This document shows positions 26,507 to 55,293 of a stretch of 64,000 bases of DNA, one piece after another (positions within the stretch are counted from its first letter, which is position 1; each line of letters starts with the position of its first letter). The translations under genes and the position numbers were made by a program. The notes beneath the pieces are model-generated. The model searched no databases and was not told where the DNA came from. It saw only the letters and a program-made list of their open reading frames with translations. The stretch covers positions 1 through 64,000 of the forward strand of contig VMTA01000018.1 in NCBI GenBank assembly GCA_013791855.1. The letters are read 5' to 3'. The DNA is from Sideroxydans sp. (lineage in GTDB: Bacteria > Pseudomonadota > Gammaproteobacteria > Burkholderiales > Gallionellaceae).

Positions 26507-26585
26507 GTCCGGAATGCAGCCTGTGCCTCGCAATCGAGCGAGCGCGGGCAGCTCTATGGAGGAGACCCCGTAATCAGGGGAAGAC

Positions 26586-29004: not shown

Positions 29005-30392
29005 TTCCCCCGCAGAATGCTCATCCCCTTCAATAGATTCAGTGCCTGATTCAGCTGATAGTCGTTCTTGGCGCCGAATTCTGCCACCTCTATCTTGTCG
29101 GTACTCTCGTCCTTGTTCTTGGGCGCTGCTTTGCGCGCTGGCTTGGTCACATTGCCGGGTTGCTCCAGTTGACCGTTGCTCAGGTGCTTGTCCAGATCGG
29201 CCTCGCGCAAACGCAAAGTGCTGTCGAAGGCGGCTGTCGCCGGATCTTCCACGATGATATCCGGCTCGATACCCTTGGCCTGGATGGAACGGCCGCTTGG
29301 GGTGTAATAGCGTGCGGTGGTCAGCTTGATGGCGGTGTTGTTGCCGAGCGGCAGGATGGTCTGCACCGAGCCTTTGCCGAACGATTGTGTGCCCATGATG
29401 ACGGCGCGTTTATGATCCTGCAACGCACCGGCTACGATCTCCGAAGCGGAGGCAGAGCCGCCGTTCACCAGCACTACCATCGGTACATTGCCGAATTCTC
29501 CCGGCAGATCTTTCAGATAGTCCTGCTTGTTGCCGCGCAGATAATAATCGGGGCTGGCCAGCAGGCGCATGCGCGCATCGTCGGTACGTCCTTCGGTGTA
29601 GACCACCAGCGCATCCTTGGGCAGGAAGGCGGCGGAAACGCCGACTGCTGCGGTCAATAAGCCGCCCGGATCGTTGCGCAGATCCAAGACCAGGCCTTGC
29701 AAGGGGGCTTTGTTCTGCTTGCTCAGGTCAGCAAGTGCGGCAGCGAGGTTCTCGCCGGTGTGCTCCTGGAACTGTGTGATGCGCACGAATCCATAGCCTG
29801 GCTCGGGCAGCTTGTATTTCACACTTTGCACTTTGATCACTGCGCGCACGATGTCGACCTGGAAAGGCTTGGGCTCGCTCTTGCGCACCACGGTCAGGCG
29901 GATGGTGCTGCCGGGTTTGCCGCGCATACGCTTGACCGCGTCGTTCAGCGTGAGGCCTTTGACCAGCGTGTCATCCAGTTTGATGATCAGGTCGCCGCTC
30001 TGGATGCCTGCCTTGAATGCGGGGGTATCTTCTATCGGTGAAATGACCTTGACCAAGCCGTCTTCCATGCCGACCTCGATTCCGAGGCCGCCGAACTCGC
30101 CCTGCGTGCCGACTTGCAGTTCCTTGAAGCCTTCGGCATCCAGATAGGCCGAGTGCGGGTCGAGCCCCGACAGCATGCCGTTGATCGCTTCGGTGATCAG
30201 CTTCTTGTCGCTCACCGGTTCTACATAGTCGCTCTTGATGCGTCCGAACACGTCGGAGAAGGCGCGCAGTTCTTCCACGGGTAACGGCAGTGGCATCTCC
30301 TTCTCGGCCACGGCGGAGAAATGCAGGCTGACAGCGATGCCGGCCACCAAACCGATACTGATCAGACCCAGTTCCTTGAAGCGACGACTCAT
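29001..30392 (-). CDS. ctpA: carboxy-terminal processing protease (S41)
   Basis: Periplasmic serine protease that trims C-termini of envelope proteins, often controlling cell-wall hydrolases. 463 residues from the ATG at 30392 (MSRRFKE), which overlaps the envC stop as ATGA; a longer start at 30422 is possible. An N-terminal anchor (about 10-30) is followed by a PDZ domain (about 85-165; GGLGIEV and GDLIIKLDD) and the S41 core with Ser in GSASASE and Lys in GKGSVQT. Its place directly after envC, whose product activates amidases, fits a septal-murein role. Confidence 0.95.
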   Translation of the reverse strand: MSRRFKELGLISIGLVAGIAVSLHFSAVAEKEMPLPLPVEELRAFSDVFGRIKSDYVEPVSDKKLITEAINGMLSGLDPHSAYLDAEGFKELQVGTQGEFGGLGIEVGMEDGLVKVISPIEDTPAFKAGIQSGDLIIKLDDTLVKGLTLNDAVKRMRGKPGSTIRLTVVRKSEPKPFQVDIVRAVIKVQSVKYKLPEPGYGFVRITQFQEHTGENLAAALADLSKQNKAPLQGLVLDLRNDPGGLLTAAVGVSAAFLPKDALVVYTEGRTDDARMRLLASPDYYLRGNKQDYLKDLPGEFGNVPMVVLVNGGSASASEIVAGALQDHKRAVIMGTQSFGKGSVQTILPLGNNTAIKLTTARYYTPSGRSIQAKGIEPDIIVEDPATAAFDSTLRLREADLDKHLSNGQLEQPGNVTKPARKAAPKNKDESTDKIEVAEFGAKNDYQLNQALNLLKGMSILRGK

Positions 30393-31525
30393 CTTGATTT
30401 TCCTCGTGGATGCTTGATCCATGTGTCGGGGTTGAATGGACTGCCTTTATAGCGCAGTTCAAAGTATAAACCGGAATCCGCGTTGCCGCCGCTGTTGCCC
30501 ACGCTGGACACGATGTCGCCGGTCTGTATGGTGTCGCCGACCTGTTTGTACAGTGTCTCGTTGTTGCCGTACAGGCTCATGAAGCCCTGTCCGTGATCGA
30601 TGATCAGCAGATTGCCGAAGCCGCGCAACCAGTCGGCATACACCACGCGACCGGCAGCGACGGCCAACACCGGTTGGCGCGCCGCCGCGCGCACGAACCA
30701 TCCGGTCCATGGCAGATTGCTTTCAGTGCGACGTTCGCCGTAGCGGTTGCTTACTTTTCCGCTGACAGGCAGTGCCAGTTTGCCTTTGAGTGCTTTGAAC
30801 GCGGAGCCGTCACCGGCGCTGGAGAGCTGCCCCAGTTCGCCGACCAGCTTGGTCAGGCGCGCTTCGTTGCGACGCAAACGCTCGATCTCGTGCCGCTGCT
30901 GTTTCAGTTGCTTGGCGATCTTGCCTAAAGTCTTGCGGCGCTTGTCCTGCTAGCGCTCCAGCTGGGACAACTCTTTTTTTTCCGAGTCTTGCAGCGCGAC
31001 GATCTCTTGTTGCTTGTCCCGGGTTTCGCGGGTCGCTGCCTGTAGTGCGGCAAGCCCGCTACGCAACTGCTGCAAAGTATCCGCCCGTTCGCGTGCGATG
31101 TAGTCGTAATAGCGCAACTCGCGTGCAAGCTGGTTCGGTTCTTGGCTATTGAGCAGAAGTTTGAGGTAATCCTGATCGATGCCGCCGATATATTGCCGGT
31201 AGAGCAAGCGCCCCAGCAAAGATTGCTGTTTGTCGTAGTCGGCGCTCAACGCGACAGTGCGCTGCTGCAAGCGGTCGAGATCGCGGTCGGCCTGGTGGCG
31301 TTGGCGTGTCAGCTGGGACAGATTGCGATTGCTGTCACTGATCGCCCGCTCGGAATCGCGCAGGGCATCGGCGACTTCGGAGCGGGATTCGCTGGCTTGT
31401 TCGAAGTCGCGCTGGATAGCGGCCAAGCGCTGGCGCAATTTCTCCAAGTCGGACTGCTGTGATGCAAGCACGCTTGTGGGCAGCAGTAGTACTGCCAGCA
31501 AGCACGAATGCAGTCTGCGTATCAC
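30389..31525 (-). pseudogene. envC: EnvC-type murein hydrolase activator interrupted by an in-frame TAG
   Basis: EnvC-like protein: signal peptide (about 1-21, ending VLAS), long coiled coil, then a LytM/M23 domain. A single TAG at 30952-30950 falls after residue 191 (LER-stop-QDKRRK). The frame continues without any shift through the remaining coiled coil and the complete LytM domain to TGA at 30389; with the stop read through the product is 378 residues, near the family's usual size. The LytM domain is degenerate (YFELRY in place of an HxH metal motif), as expected of an amidase activator rather than an enzyme. Both ends keep ATGA overlaps with gpmI and ctpA. It may be a recent nonsense mutation (CAG to TAG), a sequencing error, or suppression; the downstream part alone lacks a signal peptide. 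Confidence 0.8.
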
Positions 31526-47247: not shown

Positions 47248-47307
47248 TATAGTTCTCAGAACTTGTGGAGGGATGGGTTGCGACCTTTTGCGAAGCAAGT
47301 GATTCGG

Positions 47308-47330
47308 TATAAAAACGGGGCTGCGGCCCC
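47308..47330 (+). promoter_or_regulatory. candidate -10 and leader hairpin of mshA
   Basis: TATAAA at 47308-47313 is the best -10 candidate, though the -35 is poor. A GC-rich hairpin (47317-47321 with 47326-47330, loop TGCG) follows at the predicted 5' end of the message, where it could protect the pilin mRNA. The ribosome site AGGAGAG is at 47341-47347. Confidence 0.4.
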
Positions 47331-47352
47331 ATCAATCTCTAGGAGAGACATT

Positions 47353-47733
47353 ATGAAGAAACAACAAGGTTTTACACTGATCGAACTGATCGTGGTGATT
47401 GTGATTCTGGGTATTTTGGCTGCGACTGCATTGCCTCGTTTTGTTGATTTGGCGGCAGATGCAAGAACGGCAGCTCTGAATGGTGTGGTGGGTGCAATCA
47501 ATTCTGCAAACTCCATGAATACGGCTGCTTCAAATCTGGCAGGCAGGGGAGTTACTACAACTGGTTTGACATGTACTACCGGGATTGCTGCGATTATGGA
47601 CGGCGGGGCTATGCCGAATGGTTATACATCTACAGCAGTTGCCCTGGCTGCAGGAGCTAATACATGTGTTGTTACGCAGACAGATGGCGGCGCAACTGCA
47701 AACGTTGTTGTGAATGGTGTGACAGCCCTGTAA
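47353..47733 (+). CDS. mshA: MSHA-type major pilin
   Basis: 126-residue type IV pilin: leader MKKQQG, then FTLIELIVVIVILGILAA, with Glu5 and the N-terminal assembly helix. The C-terminal domain is short, Ala/Gly/Thr-rich, with two cysteines (in GLTCTTG and GANTCVV) able to close the D-region loop. An excellent ribosome site precedes the ATG. It is bracketed by an upstream promoter/dyad and a strong terminator, so probably transcribed alone and strongly, as expected of the major pilin. The numerous Ser/Thr could be glycosylated by the ligase at 38069-39862 (inference). Confidence 0.9.
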   Translation: MKKQQGFTLIELIVVIVILGILAATALPRFVDLAADARTAALNGVVGAINSANSMNTAASNLAGRGVTTTGLTCTTGIAAIMDGGAMPNGYTSTAVALAAGANTCVVTQTDGGATANVVVNGVTAL

Positions 47734-47820
47734 TTTTCGGAAATTAAAGGGGTCGGGTTCGATATATGTCTGACTGACTCCAAGCCCTCAACTCACCGAG
47801 GGTGAAAACAGTACAAGTAA

Positions 47821-47854
47821 TAAAACAAAGGAGGCCGTGGCCTCCTTTGTTTTA
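47821..47854 (+). terminator. intrinsic terminator after mshA
   Basis: Perfect 16-bp stem (47821-47836 with 47839-47854), GC-rich at the loop side and T-rich at the 3' end. It separates mshA from mshCDOP. Confidence 0.93.
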
Positions 47855-47950
47855 TGAGCGTATTCAACTCGTACGACTGTACGACATGGTTTATCAAACA
47901 ATCGCGGTATGCAACTGGCATCCTGCACACGGATCGCAATTTTGGTCGAA

Positions 47951-48424
47951 ATGAAGTTACAAACAAACCAGTACGGTTTCACACTGACAGAATTGATCAC
48001 TGTCATCGTGATCGTTGGCATCATTTCCGTTGCTGCCTTGCCGCGCTTCTTTGATCAGAGTGGTTTTGAAAGCCGCGGTTTCCGCGATCAGGTGGTAGCA
48101 ACGTTGCGGCATGCTCAGAAAGTGGCAATTGCCCAACACCGCTTCGTATGTGTCGCATTCACGGCTAATACAATCACGCTGACCTATGATCCTGTCCCGC
48201 CCAGTGCGGCCCATGCGACTGCGACTTGTCCGGGCAATGCGCTCACCAGCCCGACAGGGGCTACGCCATATACCGTTACTGCGCCGGGAGGCGTGGCGCT
48301 GAGCGGCTTTGCAAGTCCAATGAACTTCAATGCTTTGGGCAGGCCGAACGCAGCGCAATCCATCACAGTGAGTGGGAGTGCGGTGGCGATTATCATCGAG
48401 GCGGAGACGGGTTATGTACATTGA
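47951..48424 (+). CDS. mshC: MSHA minor prepilin MshC-like
   Basis: 157 residues. Leader MKLQTNQYG, cleavage before FTLTELITVIVIVGIISVAALPRF. The GFRDQVVATLRHAQKVAIAQHR segment is typical of GspH/FimT-type minor pilins. Cys pair in the beta domain. The start at 47951 is chosen from the prepilin leader; an upstream in-frame reading is spurious. It overlaps mshD by 11 bp. Confidence 0.85.
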   Translation: MKLQTNQYGFTLTELITVIVIVGIISVAALPRFFDQSGFESRGFRDQVVATLRHAQKVAIAQHRFVCVAFTANTITLTYDPVPPSAAHATATCPGNALTSPTGATPYTVTAPGGVALSGFASPMNFNALGRPNAAQSITVSGSAVAIIIEAETGYVH

Positions 48425-48908
48425 TCTTGCACGCTTAAAGCAGGCCGGCATCAGCTTGATCGAGCTGATCATCTTCATCGTCATCATCAGTGTGGCGCTC
48501 ACTGGCATCCTGTTGGTGATGAACCAGGTCACGGCGCACAGTGCCGACCCGCTGGTGCACAAGCAAGCCATTGCGGCAGGGGAGTCGCTGCTGGAAGAGG
48601 TGGCGCTGCAGGATTTCATCGACAGGAACGATGGCGTGACCACGGTTTGTCCGCCGGCCAGCGCGGTCACGGCAGCGAACCGGGCAACGGACTATCACAT
48701 CGTGGATTGCTATAACGGCTTTGCCATGACCGGCATCACCGACCTGAACGGAGCCGCGACGGGTTTGGCCGCCTATAACGCCAGCGTGGCGATCACTGCC
48801 GAAGCTTTGGGTGGGATTGCGGCCGGTAGTGCGGTGCGCATCGCGGTCACGGTGACCGATCCGCAGGGCAATGACATCGTGATTGACGGTTACAGGACGA
48901 AATACTGA
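48414..48908 (+). CDS. mshD: MSHA minor prepilin MshD-like
   Basis: 164 residues. Leader ends KQAG, then ISLIELIIFIVIISVALTGIL, a GspI/PilV-type prepilin with Glu5 present. Conserved GESLLEEVALQDF lies near residue 60. The start codon lies within the end of mshC in another frame, and the stop shares one base with the mshO start, so all are translated together. Confidence 0.85.
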   Translation: MYIDLARLKQAGISLIELIIFIVIISVALTGILLVMNQVTAHSADPLVHKQAIAAGESLLEEVALQDFIDRNDGVTTVCPPASAVTAANRATDYHIVDCYNGFAMTGITDLNGAATGLAAYNASVAITAEALGGIAAGSAVRIAVTVTDPQGNDIVIDGYRTKY

Positions 48909-49747
48909 TGCGCAAGTCCATCCAACAGGGGTTCACCCTGATCGAGATGATCGTGGTGATCGTCATCACCGGCATCATCGCCGGCATCGTGGCTATTTTC
49001 ATCCAAGCGCCGGTGCAGGGCTATGTGGATAGCGCGCGGCGGGCCGACTTGACCGATATCGCCGACACGGCCGTGCGCCGCGTGGCGCGCGATGTGCGCA
49101 TGGCGGTGCCGAACAGTGTGCGCCTGTCGGGTGCATGCCCGGCATGTGCGATCGAATACATACCGACCAAGGATGGCGGACGATATCGAGCTGTTCTTGA
49201 TAATCTGGGTGCAGGGGATGTGCTGGTTTTTGGCGCGGCAGACAGTAGTTTCGACATCGTCGGTGGGGGGATTGATTTTGCGGCGGGCGACTTTATCGTC
49301 GTGGGTAGTCGGGAATCGACCGCGACCTGGCCATATGACCAGACTGCGACGGGTGTGCTGCGTGCCTATAACGGGGGGGCAGGCGTTCAGACCAATGTAG
49401 CCATCACCAATGCGGTGGGACTGCGCGTCGAGGCCGAGCTGGATTCGCAACGTTTTGATGTGGTGAACGGTGCAGAGCAGGCGGTGACTTATGCCTGTGA
49501 AGGTGTAGGTACCGATGCGGCCGGCAATGGGACGGGCAGGCTGGTGCGTTACTGGGGCTACGGTTTTGACCATGCATACACCGTTGCCGACCCGAATGCC
49601 GATTTGGCCGACCGTGTCAGTGCATGCACCATGACTTATGACATCGCCAACCAGCGCTTCGGGCTGGTGACGATCAGCCTGACGCTCACCCGCGAGAACG
49701 AGAGCGTGAGCCTGTACAACGAGATCCATGTGAATAACGCGCCATGA
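48908..49747 (+). CDS. mshO: MSHA minor prepilin MshO-like
   Basis: 279 residues. Leader MRKSIQQG, then FTLIEMIVVIVITGIIAGIV; followed by ADLTDIADTAVRRVARDVRMAVPNSVRL, the pattern of GspJ-type pseudopilins and MshO. Long beta-rich C-terminal domain. A run of seven G lies at 49373-49379 within the gene. It overlaps mshP by 4 nt. Confidence 0.87.
   Translation: MRKSIQQGFTLIEMIVVIVITGIIAGIVAIFIQAPVQGYVDSARRADLTDIADTAVRRVARDVRMAVPNSVRLSGACPACAIEYIPTKDGGRYRAVLDNLGAGDVLVFGAADSSFDIVGGGIDFAAGDFIVVGSRESTATWPYDQTATGVLRAYNGGAGVQTNVAITNAVGLRVEAELDSQRFDVVNGAEQAVTYACEGVGTDAAGNGTGRLVRYWGYGFDHAYTVADPNADLADRVSACTMTYDIANQRFGLVTISLTLTRENESVSLYNEIHVNNAP
49373..49379 (+). repeat. G7 tract in mshO
   Basis: Seven consecutive G inside the coding region near codon 156, encoding Asn-Gly-Gly. 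One-base slippage would truncate MshO. Confidence 0.6.
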
Positions 49748-50172
49748 GAATCATGCAAAAGGGATTCAGCATCGTCACCGCCATCTTCCTGCTGGTGGTG
49801 TTGTCTTTCCTGGGCGTGGCGATGGTCACGTTCTCCACCACCCAGCATCAGAGTTCCGCCATGGATGTGATGGGTTCACGCGCATATCAGGCTGCGCGCG
49901 CCGGCATCGAATGGGCGGCCTATAACGTTTCGGTCACTGGTGCTGGAGTGCAGTGGGCGGGTTGTGTCGCCAACACCGGGCCGGGCGCGTTGGGCGGCAC
50001 GCTGGCGCCGTTCGCTGTGGACGTGGATTGCACAGCCACGGCGTTCAGCGAAGGTACCGCCACGATTTGGGTATACGACGTCACCGCGACAGCCACGACC
50101 GGTGGGGCGCCGGGTGATGCGGGGTATATTGAGCGCGTCATCAGCGTCAAACTGGGCGGTTCGCCCGGTTGA
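49744..50172 (+). CDS. mshP: MSHA biogenesis protein MshP-like
   Basis: 142 residues. Short basic leader MRIMQKG then FSIVTAIFLLVVLSFLGVAMV; Glu5 of ordinary pilins is absent, as in PilX/GspK-like minor pilins and MshP. TTQHQSSAMDVMGSRAYQAARAGIEW is the family-typical helix continuation. The ATG overlaps mshO. A weak intrinsic terminator follows about 90 bp downstream. Confidence 0.85.
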   Translation: MRIMQKGFSIVTAIFLLVVLSFLGVAMVTFSTTQHQSSAMDVMGSRAYQAARAGIEWAAYNVSVTGAGVQWAGCVANTGPGALGGTLAPFAVDVDCTATAFSEGTATIWVYDVTATATTGGAPGDAGYIERVISVKLGGSPG

Positions 50173-50262
50173 GCGACGAGGCTTCGTCGCCTGTTGGCGA
50201 TGCGCCGTCATTATCCCCTCGGCGCATTCGTATCGTAGCGGGTATCGCTAGCGATCACGGTG

Positions 50263-50286
50263 CGGGTTGGGGATGGCCCGTTTTTT
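50263..50286 (+). terminator. intrinsic terminator between mshP and mshQ
   Basis: Six-pair stem CGGGTT (50263-50268) with GGCCCG (50275-50280), two pairs being G-U, loop GGGGAT, and six T at 50281-50286. Confidence 0.6.
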
Positions 50287-50352
50287 GCAATCGGCATTGG
50301 GATAGAGCTATGTATGGTGCGGCGCTGGGTACTCTGAGGGGAGTCGGTGCTG

Positions 50353-50358
50353 TACAAT
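50353..50358 (+). promoter_or_regulatory. candidate -10 element of mshQ
   Basis: TACAAT (5 of 6) lies 67 bp before the mshQ ATG and downstream of the mshP terminator. No good -35 is visible. Confidence 0.3.
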
Positions 50359-50424
50359 CGCGCGCGTTTTGCGCTTAGAGGGCGCGCAGGTATCAACGAA
50401 TAAGAAAAACTTGGAGAAAGAGTG

Positions 50425-53400
50425 ATGGCTGGATCGAGGAAGTTGCGCAATTTGTGGTGGGTATTGCCGGTATTGTCGATGTTCACAGGAGAGGCTGTGG
50501 CGGCGGTTTGCACCAGTGTCAGTACAGGGCGCTGGGATCAGGCGGCCCGCTGGGATTGCGGTCGAGTGCCGTTGAGTACGGATACGGTAGTCATCGCGCA
50601 TAACAATGTGCAGATGCGCGGCAACGAAACCGTTGCTGGGCTGACCATCAATGCCGGCGCTGTGTTGGACGATGCTGGCAATCGACTCTCCTCAACTGGT
50701 GATGTGGTCATCAACGGCACCTTTGGGGTCAATGGCGGTGGCGGCGATCTGAGGATGGCAACCAGCGGTACGACGATCTCGGGTAACGGGAATATCGATG
50801 ATGCACGCTTGCAGATCGACGGCAATATCACGCTCTCGGCTGGCTCTGTGCTGAACTTCATGAATGGCGCCGATATCCGCGTCGGAAGCAACGCAGTCTC
50901 CACTTTCACTATCGACGGCGCGATCACTGCCGTAGGCATTCAAGCCGGTAGTCGCCTATTGCGTGTTGATAATAACAACGCCTCCACGGTCGTGATCAAT
51001 GGCAGCATCGATGCGCCGACCGCAAACATCGAGATCCAGCGGAACGGCACCATCCAGAATAACGGCAGCGTCACCATTGCATTTCTGGACGGGAATGGCG
51101 ATACGAATGTGACCTGGACACAGGGTGCCAATTCCACTTTGACGCTCAGTCAGCCTGCCCAAGGTTGGAACAATGGCACTTTTACAGCAAATGCTGTCGG
51201 CAATACGGTGATCTTCAACGGTACGGCGACCCCGTTCGACCCGGCCACTTATTACAATGTTGGCGGAACAAATTTCACCTGCCCTCACTCTGCAACGATC
51301 ACTGTGGCAGGCTCGACACCCTGCGGCCCGGGCGCACCTACAGTGACGACTGCAACCGCTACAGCGATGACCACGGTGGATGCGACGCTCAACGGTACGG
51401 TCAGTAGCAATCAGGCGGTCACGACCGTGAACTTCCAGTATGGCCTGACAGGTGCTTACGGCATGACGGTGGCAGCTGCACAGAGTCCGCTCGCGGCCAA
51501 TGCCGTTGGCACACCCGTGTCTGCTGCGATCACCGGCCTCACCTGCGGCACGCTCTACCATTTCCGTGCGGTCGGCACCAACACCTACGGCACCACCAAT
51601 GGTGCCGATCTGACGTTCACAACATCGGCTTGTCCGCCGGCGCCGGGCGTGGTGTCGATCAATACCGCCAGCACCAATCCGACTGCTGCGAATACGGTGG
51701 TGACTTGGGCTGTAACTTTTAATACGTCGGTCACGGGCGTGGATCTGGGTGATTTCACACTGACTTCGACAGGCGGTGTTGTTGGCGCTACGCTGACCTC
51801 CATATCTGGCACTGGTGCAAACTACACCGTGACGGCGAACACCGGCACCGGCACGGTAGGTACATTGACACTGAGAGTGGTCGACAACGACTCCATCATC
51901 GACGGCACAACTATGCCGCTGGGCGGTGTCGGAGCAGGCAATGGCAATTTCACAGGGCAGGCCTATACGCTGGTGTTGCCGACATGTACGCCGGGTTTGC
52001 TGTTCTGCGACGACTTCGAGCGGACCGTAGTGGTCGGTGGGGCCAATGCCGCCACTTCGGTCGGCACTGCTCCCGGCTACGGGGCATGGACTGTGTCTGG
52101 TTTGAATGGGGGGGCTTTAGGCACTATTTGCAATGGCATAGTAGGGAATCAAGGTTGTGCGGGCATTGATTCCGATATCCCGCCTTTTAATGTGGTAACC
52201 AACCCGCGTGCCAATGCAACAAAATCCTTGTATACGCGTTGGTCTGCAGTGACCGTGACCAGCCCGGTCATCAATCTGGCGGGCAAGGGGGGGGCACGTC
52301 TGAGTTTCTGGCTGCGTCGCGGTTCCGACTGCTTCAGCGAATGGCCGAGTAACAATACTTGGCATACCTTTGCACGTTGCGGCCAAGTCATCCCGAACTT
52401 CACGCCCACCGCGGGGGAAGAGTTCCAGGTGCAATACCTGAACAACGTCGGTGCTTGGGTGGTGATCGCGCAATATCCGATGGACGATGCGCCCGGCCAG
52501 ATCTTCGTTCCGGTGATCGGTCTGCCGGAGGATGCCCTGCATGCGAATTTCCAGTTCCGCTTCGCGCAACCGGGCGGTAGCGGCAGCAATGCCACGACTG
52601 GCGGCGCACCGGGCGTGCGCGGTTACGATTACTGGCATGTGGACAATGTGGTGCTGGAAGAAGTGCCTAGCGTCTCGTTCTCCGGCCCGTTCTGTGACAC
52701 CTTCGAAGGCGACCTGTCGCGTTGGGATATGGCCGGCACGGGCAACGTGCGCATCGGCTCGACCTGGTTCCAGAACGGCATCCACGGTATGGATCTGCGC
52801 TGGAACACGGTCAGTGCGACCACGCGCGCGACCGACCTGTCGGTGGATTCGGGTAACAATCTGATCACGTTCTGGGTCAAGCGCGGTACCGGGGTGATGA
52901 CGCAAGTGCCGAATGGAACTGGCAGCGAATATCCAGACACGGTGGCGAAAGGGTTGAAGGTCGAATACCTGAACAATCTCGGCGCATGGGTGCAGCTCGG
53001 CACGACCTTCCCCGGCGCCGGTACGCAAGGACAAGTGTTCGACCCGGTCGGCACTCCGGCGACGAATAGCTTCGCTATCCCAGCGAATGCAAAGCATGCC
53101 AACTTCAGGTTGCGCATCAGTATGCTCGCAGGTTCCGGCCTGTTCGACCAGGACTACTGGCATGTGGATGACGTGTGTGTCGGCTCCAGCGTGGGGGCGA
53201 CCGACCTGTCCATGACCATGAGCAGTGCGGGTGTCTTCTCGCCGGGACAGTATGTGACCTACACCATGACGGTGACCAACAACGGACCGAACAGCGATCC
53301 AGGCCCGATCACCATCACTGATACCTTGCCGGTCGGATTGACCTTCGTCGGCGGCAGCGCGGGCTGGGCATGCAGTGCGGCCGGTCAGGATGTAACCTGC

Positions 53401-55293
53401 ACCCAGACAGGTGCGCTGGCCAACCTAGCATCGACGACGTTGACCATCACTGCCACGGTCGATGCCGGGGCTTCGGGCTCTATCACCAACACGGCAACCG
53501 TGGGCGGGCAGACCAATGACATCAGTCAGGCGAACAACACAGCGACCAAGACCGATACATTGTTCGTGCCGGGCTATGTCTTCACCGACAAGGCCTGTGC
53601 GATGGACGGCACTGCGGTCGGCGTCGGGGCGCAATGCAGCGAGATCGCTTGGAACCCGCAGACTGCGGGGACTCCGCAGACCAATGTCTACATCACTGCC
53701 GTGAACGCGGCTATGGTGCCGACACAGTTGCACGGCACCAATCCCACCACGGTGAGTATGCAGTTCGGCTTGTCGTGCCACGACCCCGTCGCGAATGCGG
53801 GTGTGCAAGCCACGTTCTATGACGGGGCTACTACCAAGGTGTTGCCGCTGTGTACGTCCAACGGTGCAGTACCGGCATCATGGTCTACTGCCTGGGCGAT
53901 GAGTTTCCCTGCCGCGACGGCCAGCGTGGGCCCGTTCAACTTCAACTACAACGATGTAGGCGCGGTAGAGCTATTCGTACGAAACAACGCGGTGACAACC
54001 CAGGTCGGCAGCAGCGGCAAGTTCGTCGTGAAGCCGGCGGGATTCAGTTTTGTGTTTGAGAATGCTGCCGGTACGCTTACGAATCCGTCTGCTGCGGATG
54101 CCACCGGGGCAGCGTTCGTCAAGGCGGGTGAGGCATTCAAGGCGACAATCTCGGCTGTCACGGCAGGCGGAGCGGTCACGCCCAACTTCGGCAATGAAGT
54201 GACGCGCGAGCTCATCGGGTTGTCGCATGCCCTGGCGCCGGGATTGGGGCTGGTCAATGCAGGCACCCTGACCGGTACGTTGGGCGCACCGGTGAACGGG
54301 GTGGCGACAGCAGATGGGGTTTCGCTGCTGGCCGACGGCGTCACAACCAGCGCCATGCTGGCATGGAGCGAGGTTGGCATACTGCAGTTCACGGCGAGCT
54401 TCGCGGACGGCAACTACAATCCGGGCGGATTCGTTGGGCCGTATCCGGTGAGCGCGGTCAGTGGCAATGTAGGCCGTTTCTATCCGGATCATTTTGATAC
54501 AGTGGTCACAGCGCCGATGGACTGCACCGGCCTGACGCTGGTCTGCCCTGATAACGGGCTGGTGTATTCCGGTCAGGCGTTGCCGGTGAGCGTGGAGGCC
54601 AGGAACGCAAACGATCAGGTCACGCAGAACTATCGCTACTCGGCGACTGCATCTCAGAATTTCGCACGAGCAGCAGTGTTGTCTGCGGTCGATGCGGTTA
54701 ATAGCGGTACCGCAGTAGCCGGAGGCAACCTGAGCGTGACGGCTGTCGCAGCCTCGGCCTTCAGCAACGGCACAGCGAATGCGGTTCCGGTATTCACTTT
54801 CGCAGCGGTACCGAGCGCACCAACGGATGCCTACATCAGTGCGATCGAGTCGGGCGGCGATGGCGTCACGTCTACCGCCCATGAGCAAGGAACCAAGGTG
54901 GTGAGCGGCCGCATCAAGGTCGGCAATGCCTACGGCTCCGAGAAGCTGCCTCTCACGGTACCGGTGACCATCCAGTACTGGGATGGCGCAAGGTGGGTGT
55001 TGAGCTCGACAGATGGTGTAACACAGGTCAACACAAATCTGAGCACGGCTGGCGGCAATCTGGTGGCGGGCATCGTCAGCGGTCTGGGTAGCGGAGTGAG
55101 TGTATCCGGTGCCGGCTTGAAGACAGTGGCGAACGGGCAGTTGCAGAATTTCACTCTGAATCGCCCCAATGTTTCGGGTGTGGTGGATCTGAGCTTCAAT
55201 GCACCGATCTGGCTGTCACTTCAGGCAGGGCAAGTGACGTTCGGCATCTACAAGGGCGGCAAGGAGTTCATCTATCTGCGCGAAGCGTATTGA
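50425..55293 (+). CDS. mshQ: MSHA biogenesis protein MshQ-like giant surface protein
   Basis: 1622 residues, exported (signal peptide about 1-26, ending AVAAV). Architecture: right-handed beta-helix-like Asn/Gly-rich region (about 30-265); Ig/fibronectin-like repeats with the FQYGLTGAYG and YHFRAVGTNTYG patterns (about 300-510); two related lectin/MAM-like domains, each opening FCDxFE and closing WHVDxV (about 526-740 and 755-915); a DUF11 domain (about 925-1045, TVTNNGPNSDPGP); and the MshQ-specific C-terminal DUF6701 (about 1050-1622) ending KGGKEFIYLRE. MshQ is thought to sit at the pilus tip, stabilised by minor pilins. Two G tracts (G7, G8) lie in the first lectin-like domain. It forms its own unit between two terminators. 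Confidence 0.88.
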   Translation: MAGSRKLRNLWWVLPVLSMFTGEAVAAVCTSVSTGRWDQAARWDCGRVPLSTDTVVIAHNNVQMRGNETVAGLTINAGAVLDDAGNRLSSTGDVVINGTFGVNGGGGDLRMATSGTTISGNGNIDDARLQIDGNITLSAGSVLNFMNGADIRVGSNAVSTFTIDGAITAVGIQAGSRLLRVDNNNASTVVINGSIDAPTANIEIQRNGTIQNNGSVTIAFLDGNGDTNVTWTQGANSTLTLSQPAQGWNNGTFTANAVGNTVIFNGTATPFDPATYYNVGGTNFTCPHSATITVAGSTPCGPGAPTVTTATATAMTTVDATLNGTVSSNQAVTTVNFQYGLTGAYGMTVAAAQSPLAANAVGTPVSAAITGLTCGTLYHFRAVGTNTYGTTNGADLTFTTSACPPAPGVVSINTASTNPTAANTVVTWAVTFNTSVTGVDLGDFTLTSTGGVVGATLTSISGTGANYTVTANTGTGTVGTLTLRVVDNDSIIDGTTMPLGGVGAGNGNFTGQAYTLVLPTCTPGLLFCDDFERTVVVGGANAATSVGTAPGYGAWTVSGLNGGALGTICNGIVGNQGCAGIDSDIPPFNVVTNPRANATKSLYTRWSAVTVTSPVINLAGKGGARLSFWLRRGSDCFSEWPSNNTWHTFARCGQVIPNFTPTAGEEFQVQYLNNVGAWVVIAQYPMDDAPGQIFVPVIGLPEDALHANFQFRFAQPGGSGSNATTGGAPGVRGYDYWHVDNVVLEEVPSVSFSGPFCDTFEGDLSRWDMAGTGNVRIGSTWFQNGIHGMDLRWNTVSATTRATDLSVDSGNNLITFWVKRGTGVMTQVPNGTGSEYPDTVAKGLKVEYLNNLGAWVQLGTTFPGAGTQGQVFDPVGTPATNSFAIPANAKHANFRLRISMLAGSGLFDQDYWHVDDVCVGSSVGATDLSMTMSSAGVFSPGQYVTYTMTVTNNGPNSDPGPITITDTLPVGLTFVGGSAGWACSAAGQDVTCTQTGALANLASTTLTITATVDAGASGSITNTATVGGQTNDISQANNTATKTDTLFVPGYVFTDKACAMDGTAVGVGAQCSEIAWNPQTAGTPQTNVYITAVNAAMVPTQLHGTNPTTVSMQFGLSCHDPVANAGVQATFYDGATTKVLPLCTSNGAVPASWSTAWAMSFPAATASVGPFNFNYNDVGAVELFVRNNAVTTQVGSSGKFVVKPAGFSFVFENAAGTLTNPSAADATGAAFVKAGEAFKATISAVTAGGAVTPNFGNEVTRELIGLSHALAPGLGLVNAGTLTGTLGAPVNGVATADGVSLLADGVTTSAMLAWSEVGILQFTASFADGNYNPGGFVGPYPVSAVSGNVGRFYPDHFDTVVTAPMDCTGLTLVCPDNGLVYSGQALPVSVEARNANDQVTQNYRYSATASQNFARAAVLSAVDAVNSGTAVAGGNLSVTAVAASAFSNGTANAVPVFTFAAVPSAPTDAYISAIESGGDGVTSTAHEQGTKVVSGRIKVGNAYGSEKLPLTVPVTIQYWDGARWVLSSTDGVTQVNTNLSTAGGNLVAGIVSGLGSGVSVSGAGLKTVANGQLQNFTLNRPNVSGVVDLSFNAPIWLSLQAGQVTFGIYKGGKEFIYLREAY
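52108..52114 (+). repeat. G7 tract in mshQ
   Basis: Seven consecutive G near codon 562, encoding Gly-Gly. Confidence 0.6.
52287..52294 (+). repeat. G8 tract in mshQ
   Basis: Eight consecutive G near codon 622, the longest homopolymer G run I found in the window; loss or gain of one base would truncate MshQ after about 620 residues. Confidence 0.65.

What the first reader, a model, noticed from the sequence alone, without database searches (positions are those of the whole stretch)
30389..31525. envC split by a single in-frame amber codon
Reading on the minus strand, one TAG (30952-30950) interrupts an otherwise intact EnvC-like frame. Codons on both sides continue the same coiled coil and the LytM domain is complete. 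The next codon is CAG, and CAG to TAG is a one-base change. The downstream fragment has no signal peptide or ribosome site, so without read-through the amidase activator would be lost, with an expected effect on cell separation. Both flanking ATGA overlaps are preserved, so the break looks recent, is suppressed, or is an assembly error.
Basis: partly seen in the sequence, partly recalled or inferred. Interest (0 to 1): 0.75.

Follow-up and report, generated by a model that had tools for sequence, protein, structure and literature searches.

The report
Division gene with private stop codon
A single stop codon interrupts an otherwise well-kept cell-division gene in one bacterium related to Sideroxydans; the relatives examined have the gene whole, so this is most likely an ordinary recent loss of function (or a base-call error), not a new way of reading the code.

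Summary
In detail: on the minus strand one in-frame TAG (30952-30950) interrupts a 378-codon EnvC frame, without frame shift. In the 30 relatives' sequences aligned the codon is Glu (9) or Asp (21), never Gln or a stop. All 80 genome contigs EnvC loci kept read through the site in one frame.

I found no sign of amber recoding: none of 42 tRNA genes found has a CUA anticodon, release factor 1 is intact, 27 of 160 genes end in TAG, and no pyrrolysyl-tRNA synthetase reaches cut-off. On 191 kb of one contig, envC is the only mid-gene stop I accept as lying in a real gene. The half after the stop shows no relaxation: 1 private amino-acid change against about 12.7 expected if neutral.

Best reading: a very recent private nonsense allele, leaving an exported stub with the FtsX-binding coiled coil but no LytM activator. 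An assembly error cannot be excluded without reads. FtsE, FtsX and AmiC- and NlpD-like proteins remain intact, so the effect may be mild.

The parts
30389..31525 (-). envC frame, 378 codons plus TGA, GTG start, one internal TAG
   Evidence: orthologues aligned
30950..30952 (-). the in-frame TAG (codon 192)
   Evidence: Glu/Asp in 30 of 30 aligned relatives' sequences
30950..31525 (-). ORF upstream of the stop, 191 aa: hydrophobic N-terminus (about residues 1-22, signal-peptide-like, judged by eye) and most of the coiled coil
   Evidence: NCBIfam EnvC profile 2-169, 47.2 bits
30389..30949 (-). remnant after the stop, 186 codons: end of coiled coil, restraining-arm-like region (by alignment to E. 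coli EnvC), LytM domain; first in-frame ATG/GTG/TTG is a TTG at 30877
30428..30709 (-). LytM (Peptidase_M23) domain, intact
   Evidence: PF01551, 88.3 bits, 86.9 bits
31522..33072 (-). gpmI (2,3-bisphosphoglycerate-independent phosphoglycerate mutase), intact; its TGA overlaps the envC GTG (GTGA)
   Evidence: TIGR01307, 707 bits
29001..30392 (-). S41 C-terminal processing peptidase, intact; ATG at 30392 overlaps the envC TGA (ATGA); a longer ORF starts at 30422
   Evidence: TIGR00225, 332.3 bits for the ORF from 30422

Best explanation
The window carries a private, very recent nonsense allele of envC in a bacterium related to Sideroxydans (Gallionellaceae; inferred from the nearest relatives). 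One base change turned what was most likely a Glu codon of the second coiled-coil helix into TAG. Translation should end after 191 residues. The stub would be exported and keeps both regions that match the FtsX contacts of E. coli EnvC, but it lacks the restraining arm and the LytM domain that switches on the amidase. The part after the stop has no export signal and should not be made usefully. Septal amidase activation would then rest on the NlpD-like and AmiC-like proteins, which are intact, with FtsEX left without a working EnvC. Shown: the stop, intact relatives, intact partners, no recoding machinery found. Inferred: that the base is real, that no read-through occurs, and the phenotype.
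For: Single in-frame TAG. Glu or Asp in 30 of 30 aligned sequences, and 80 of 80 genome-contig loci kept are open across the site. No second EnvC copy found in the genome: the N-part has one match and the 251-bp stretch has one. The only interrupted frame that I accept as a real gene among 161 (G015) and 96 (G003) coding-like matches on 191 kb of one contig (the one other mid-gene flag with signal on both sides is a shadow of an intact gene). No CUA tRNA among 42 found, RF1 528.7 bits, TAG terminates 27 of 160 genes. No unusual fold after the stop (z = 0.89). The stop maps to about residue 204 of E. coli EnvC, beyond the FtsX contacts 114-128 and 141-160 and before the restraining arm 222-278 (passages of PMC7668044). 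NlpD-like, AmiC-like, FtsE and FtsX proteins intact.
Against: No reads or second genome of the same species are at hand (nearest relative in the genus set 82% DNA identity over 251 bp), so the base itself is unverified. EnvC is otherwise kept: 33 of 34 genomes of the genus, own included, have an EnvC-level match (the other, G031, is 79% complete). The part after the stop shows no decay, which an error or read-through would also give. The assembly lacks 16S rRNA, so a tRNA gene could be in a missing piece.
Confidence: 0.62

Rival explanations
1. A consensus or assembly error, or a minority strain variant fixed in the consensus; the organism's envC is whole.
For: The genome looks like a draft (47 contigs; no 16S). 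The half after the stop is under constraint, and no other gene of those surveyed on 191 kb is accepted as broken. A single wrong base would look exactly like this.
Against: The gene shows no excess of private changes: 9 own singletons in both parts together against 19 to 51 in the six relatives (sums by hand). No frame shift that I accept as real in the surveyed genes (by eye; the one near 101500 is unclear).
Confidence: 0.27
2. The amber is read through at some level, by near-cognate misreading or an unseen suppressor tRNA, so some full-length EnvC is made.
For: Downstream half conserved. In-frame stops with purifying selection are reported to be widespread in bacteria (PMC7918605, abstract and first part of the Results).
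Against: No CUA tRNA among 42 found, RF1 intact, TAG is an ordinary terminator in 27 of 160 genes, no stable structure after the stop, and the stop is not shared by any relative examined.
Confidence: 0.08
3. The stub is selected: it occupies FtsX without activating an amidase, a decoy that damps septal hydrolysis.
For: The stub keeps the regions matching both FtsX contacts and would be exported.
Against: One genome only, no sign of conservation of the truncated form, and part of the paired coiled coil is missing.
Confidence: 0.03

Closest known systems
EnvC, murein hydrolase activator (NCBIfam NF008644; structures 6tpi, 8hd0, 8tzk, 8i6o)
   Same: Coiled coil followed by LytM domain, in the order gpmI, envC, S41 peptidase; FtsE, FtsX and an AMIN-Amidase_3 amidase present in the genome.
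   Different: This copy has an in-frame TAG at codon 192, so the encoded product lacks the restraining arm and LytM domain.
In-frame stop codons in bacterial genes under purifying selection (PMC7918605; abstract and first part of Results read)
   Same: A stop within a gene whose downstream part is still constrained. [quoted passage not shown]
   Different: Their main set was limited to stops shared by two or more species; this one is seen in one genome only.
NlpD amidase activator
   Same: Partly redundant LytM activator of septal amidases in E. coli (PMC5533458, abstract and passages); an intact LysM-LytM NlpD-like protein is in this genome (best NCBIfam match NlpD at 216.9 bits, below its cut-off of 311).
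   Different: Separate locus (contig C23); in E. coli an outer-membrane lipoprotein; not broken here.

Membership tests
EnvC | Match to the EnvC profile over coiled coil and LytM | tested here: inconclusive
   Pieces match profile 2-169 (47.2 bits) and 261-383 (122.4 bits), EnvC being the best NCBIfam family for both. Cut-off 270 is not reached, but three intact orthologues also score only 163.6-173.6, so the cut-off looks too strict for this clade.
EnvC | Homology to structurally solved EnvC over the full length | tested here: met
   Intact orthologue L008 aligns over residues 3-371 to 8tzk_E (5.4e-45) and in two stretches to E. coli EnvC 8hd0_E; the own downstream piece matches the same chains.
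EnvC | Degenerate LytM without metal ligands | tested here: met
   By eye: the positions aligned with E. coli EnvC read WTGW and YFELR; the active M23 motifs (HxxxD, HxH) are recalled, not from a call.
EnvC | FtsEX and amidase partners in the genome | tested here: met
   FtsX 312 bits and FtsE 283.5 bits, both above cut-off; one Amidase_3 protein with AMIN domain (AmiC is its best NCBIfam match at 461.5 bits, below the cut-off of 700).
Functional EnvC | One uninterrupted reading frame | tested here: not met
   TAG at 30952-30950.
Amber recoding or suppression | tRNA with CUA anticodon | tested here: not met
   None among 42 tRNA genes found by Rfam (E up to 0.01) and typed by ARAGORN; assembly lacks 16S rRNA, so not absolute.
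Amber recoding or suppression | RF1 lost, TAG rare as terminator, or TAG within many genes | tested here: not met
   prfA 528.7 bits; 27 of 160 genes end in TAG; no other interrupted gene accepted on 191 kb of one contig.
Amber recoding or suppression | Pyrrolysine synthetase | tested here: not met
   TIGR02367 best 22.6 bits, cut-off 178.15.
Amber recoding or suppression | Full-length protein observed | not testable with these tools
   Needs proteomics.

The most novel reading that the evidence does not exclude
The amber is a tolerated, selected low-expression switch: most ribosomes make an exported FtsX-binding stub without an activator domain, and a little read-through makes full EnvC, so the stop sets the ratio of decoy to activator at the septum.
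Probability: 0.03. Interest if true: 0.6.

Novelty: new member of a known kind. Interest (0 to 1): 0.13.

Why it matters
If the base is real, it is a natural envC null in a genus that otherwise keeps the gene, with an NlpD-like protein, the single Amidase_3 amidase found and FtsEX left intact. That would be a small natural test of how dispensable the EnvC branch is when one amidase serves two activators. It says nothing new about the genetic code.

Tried and rejected
Recoding, suppressor tRNA and pyrrolysine: no support. Structure-driven read-through: the RNA fold after the stop is weaker than the shuffles on average (z = 0.89). A second EnvC copy in the genome: none found.

Widespread decay or poor assembly: further stops and frame shifts were flagged. 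The stops at 26571 and 17112 lie upstream of the likely true starts (inspected). 84665-85006, the only other flag with a third-position excess on both sides of a mid-frame stop, is a shadow of an intact plus-strand frame. The other stops lie within the first 78 codons of the relatives' ORFs or matches, without a third-position excess before the stop, or within the last four codons; I took them as start and end differences from the counts, without inspecting each (at 154521 there is only one difference before the stop, too few to tell). Flags that failed the third-position filter were dropped as shadow frames. The frame changes at about 24250, 101500 and 188129 lie in frames that look non-coding or shadow-like (by eye; the one at 101500 is the least clear). 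The survey saw only relatives' ORFs of 100 aa or more, at 60% identity or more, on 190,999 bases of one of 47 contigs.

The first alignment was wrong because minus-strand loci were not reversed; one search replaces it. A paper search for 'Sideroxydans' with 'nonsense mutation' gave one paper, seen as a listing only and on another subject.

Full report
What is there. On the minus strand, 31525-30389 is one frame of 378 codons with a single internal TAG at 30952-30950. The upstream piece (191 aa) and the downstream piece (186 aa) match the beginning and the end of the same EnvC profile, and the downstream piece holds a complete LytM/M23 domain. The gene lies between gpmI and an S41 C-terminal processing peptidase. 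Its start is GTG, overlapping the gpmI stop as GTGA; its stop overlaps the peptidase start as ATGA.

Whose genome. The window is part of a 2.55-Mb, 47-contig, 99.74% complete genome. The six nearest relatives of the downstream piece (86-90% identity) are four assemblies labelled Sideroxydans and two labelled only Gammaproteobacteria; further down the list come many Gallionellaceae and Nitrosomonadales. No second genome of the same species was found: the best match to a 251-bp stretch around the stop in the other 33 genomes of the genus is 82% identical.

What relatives have. Of the 34 genus genomes searched, 33 (own included) have an EnvC-level match (best E of about 1e-34 or lower); the exception, G031, is 79% complete. 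I aligned 30 sequences besides the own one: 29 loci, one for each of 29 of the 33 other genomes, plus L012. G013 and G027 (no locus returned), the contig-split G010, and G031 were not aligned. Nine sequences have Glu (six GAA, three GAG) and 21 have Asp at the position of the stop; none has Gln or a stop. All 80 genome-contig loci kept (80 of 176 relatives found) have both halves in one open frame. Many of these 80 are the same records as the genus genomes, so the two counts are not independent. They were also chosen by similarity to the downstream half, which favours intact genes.

Is the genome recoded or decayed? The whole-genome tRNA search gave 42 matches; ARAGORN typed all 42 (30 as loci, the other 12 in the regions) and none has a CUA anticodon. 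RF1 is intact. There is no pyrrolysyl-tRNA synthetase above cut-off. Among 160 own genes with coding signal against G015, 27 end in TAG. I compared 191 kb of the contig with ORFs of two relatives. By third-position excess there were 161 coding-like matches to G015 and 96 to G003. envC is the only one that I accept as interrupted in mid-gene; the other flags were put down to start or end differences and shadow frames, some by inspection and some from the counts alone (see Tried and rejected). So this looks like an isolated event. The limit: the assembly lacks 16S rRNA, and no Ile-GAT or Ala-TGC tRNA appears, so a piece with tRNAs is probably missing.

Age. Against six close orthologues, pairwise dN/dS of the own sequence is 0.075-0.176 before the stop and 0.063-0.123 after it; among the relatives themselves it is 0.063-0.154 and 0.051-0.153. 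The part after the stop has 4 synonymous and 1 non-synonymous changes private to the own sequence, where about 12.7 non-synonymous would be expected if neutral; the Poisson chance of 1 or fewer is about 4 in 100,000 (hand arithmetic, treating 12.7 as exact although it rests on 4 changes). There is no sign of long decay. This fits a recent mutation, an error, or read-through alike.

What it would do. Aligned to E. coli EnvC (8hd0_E), the stop falls at about residue 204 (by way of the intact orthologue L008). From passages of PMC7668044: FtsX contacts are at residues 114-128 and 141-160, the restraining arm is 222-278, and the LytM construct is 278-419. The stub thus keeps both FtsX-contact regions but loses the arm and the activator. 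The rest has no signal peptide that I can see, and its first in-frame common start is a TTG at 30877. The genome has intact FtsE, FtsX, one AMIN-Amidase_3 amidase (best match AmiC) and a LysM-LytM protein (best match NlpD); the last two score below the cut-offs of those NCBIfam models. In E. coli, NlpD and EnvC are partly redundant and loss of one alone does not cause a significant separation defect (PMC5533458, abstract and passages). Whether the same holds with a single amidase is not known here.

Verdict. The sequence feature is real as given, and ordinary in kind: a private in-frame stop in a known gene. A true recent nonsense allele is the best reading (0.62), an assembly or consensus error the main rival (0.27). 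Read-through has no positive support beyond the conserved downstream half, which the other two readings also predict. In-frame stops of short persistence are described in general in PMC7918605 (abstract and first part of Results). On checking, the range of private changes in the relatives was corrected to 19-51 and labels of partner proteins were softened; the odds did not need changing.

Noticed in passing
L012 (JAQUAD010000088.1), 630-1178: The Sideroxydans STC_76 assembly holds two EnvC genes: this one (76% identical, contig coverage 2.3 in its title) and L007 (90%, coverage 6.5). The low-coverage one may be a contaminant contig from another organism.
   Followed up: no
whole genome G000: No 16S rRNA gene, and no Ile-GAT or Ala-TGC tRNA, was found; probably the rRNA operon is missing from the assembly.
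   Followed up: partly
window 47278-55290: 50653-55290 aligns only in pieces at 28-34% with ORFs of 2173 and 2543 aa at the same place in two relatives, and the short genes before it (47278-50157) are 37-85% identical, while most other genes of the window are above 85%: a fast-changing block with a large gene.
   Followed up: no
window 30974-30981: A run of eight A lies about 20 bases before the stop; two of six close orthologues (L119, L120) have the same run. A slip there would change the frame and not bypass the TAG usefully.
   Followed up: partly
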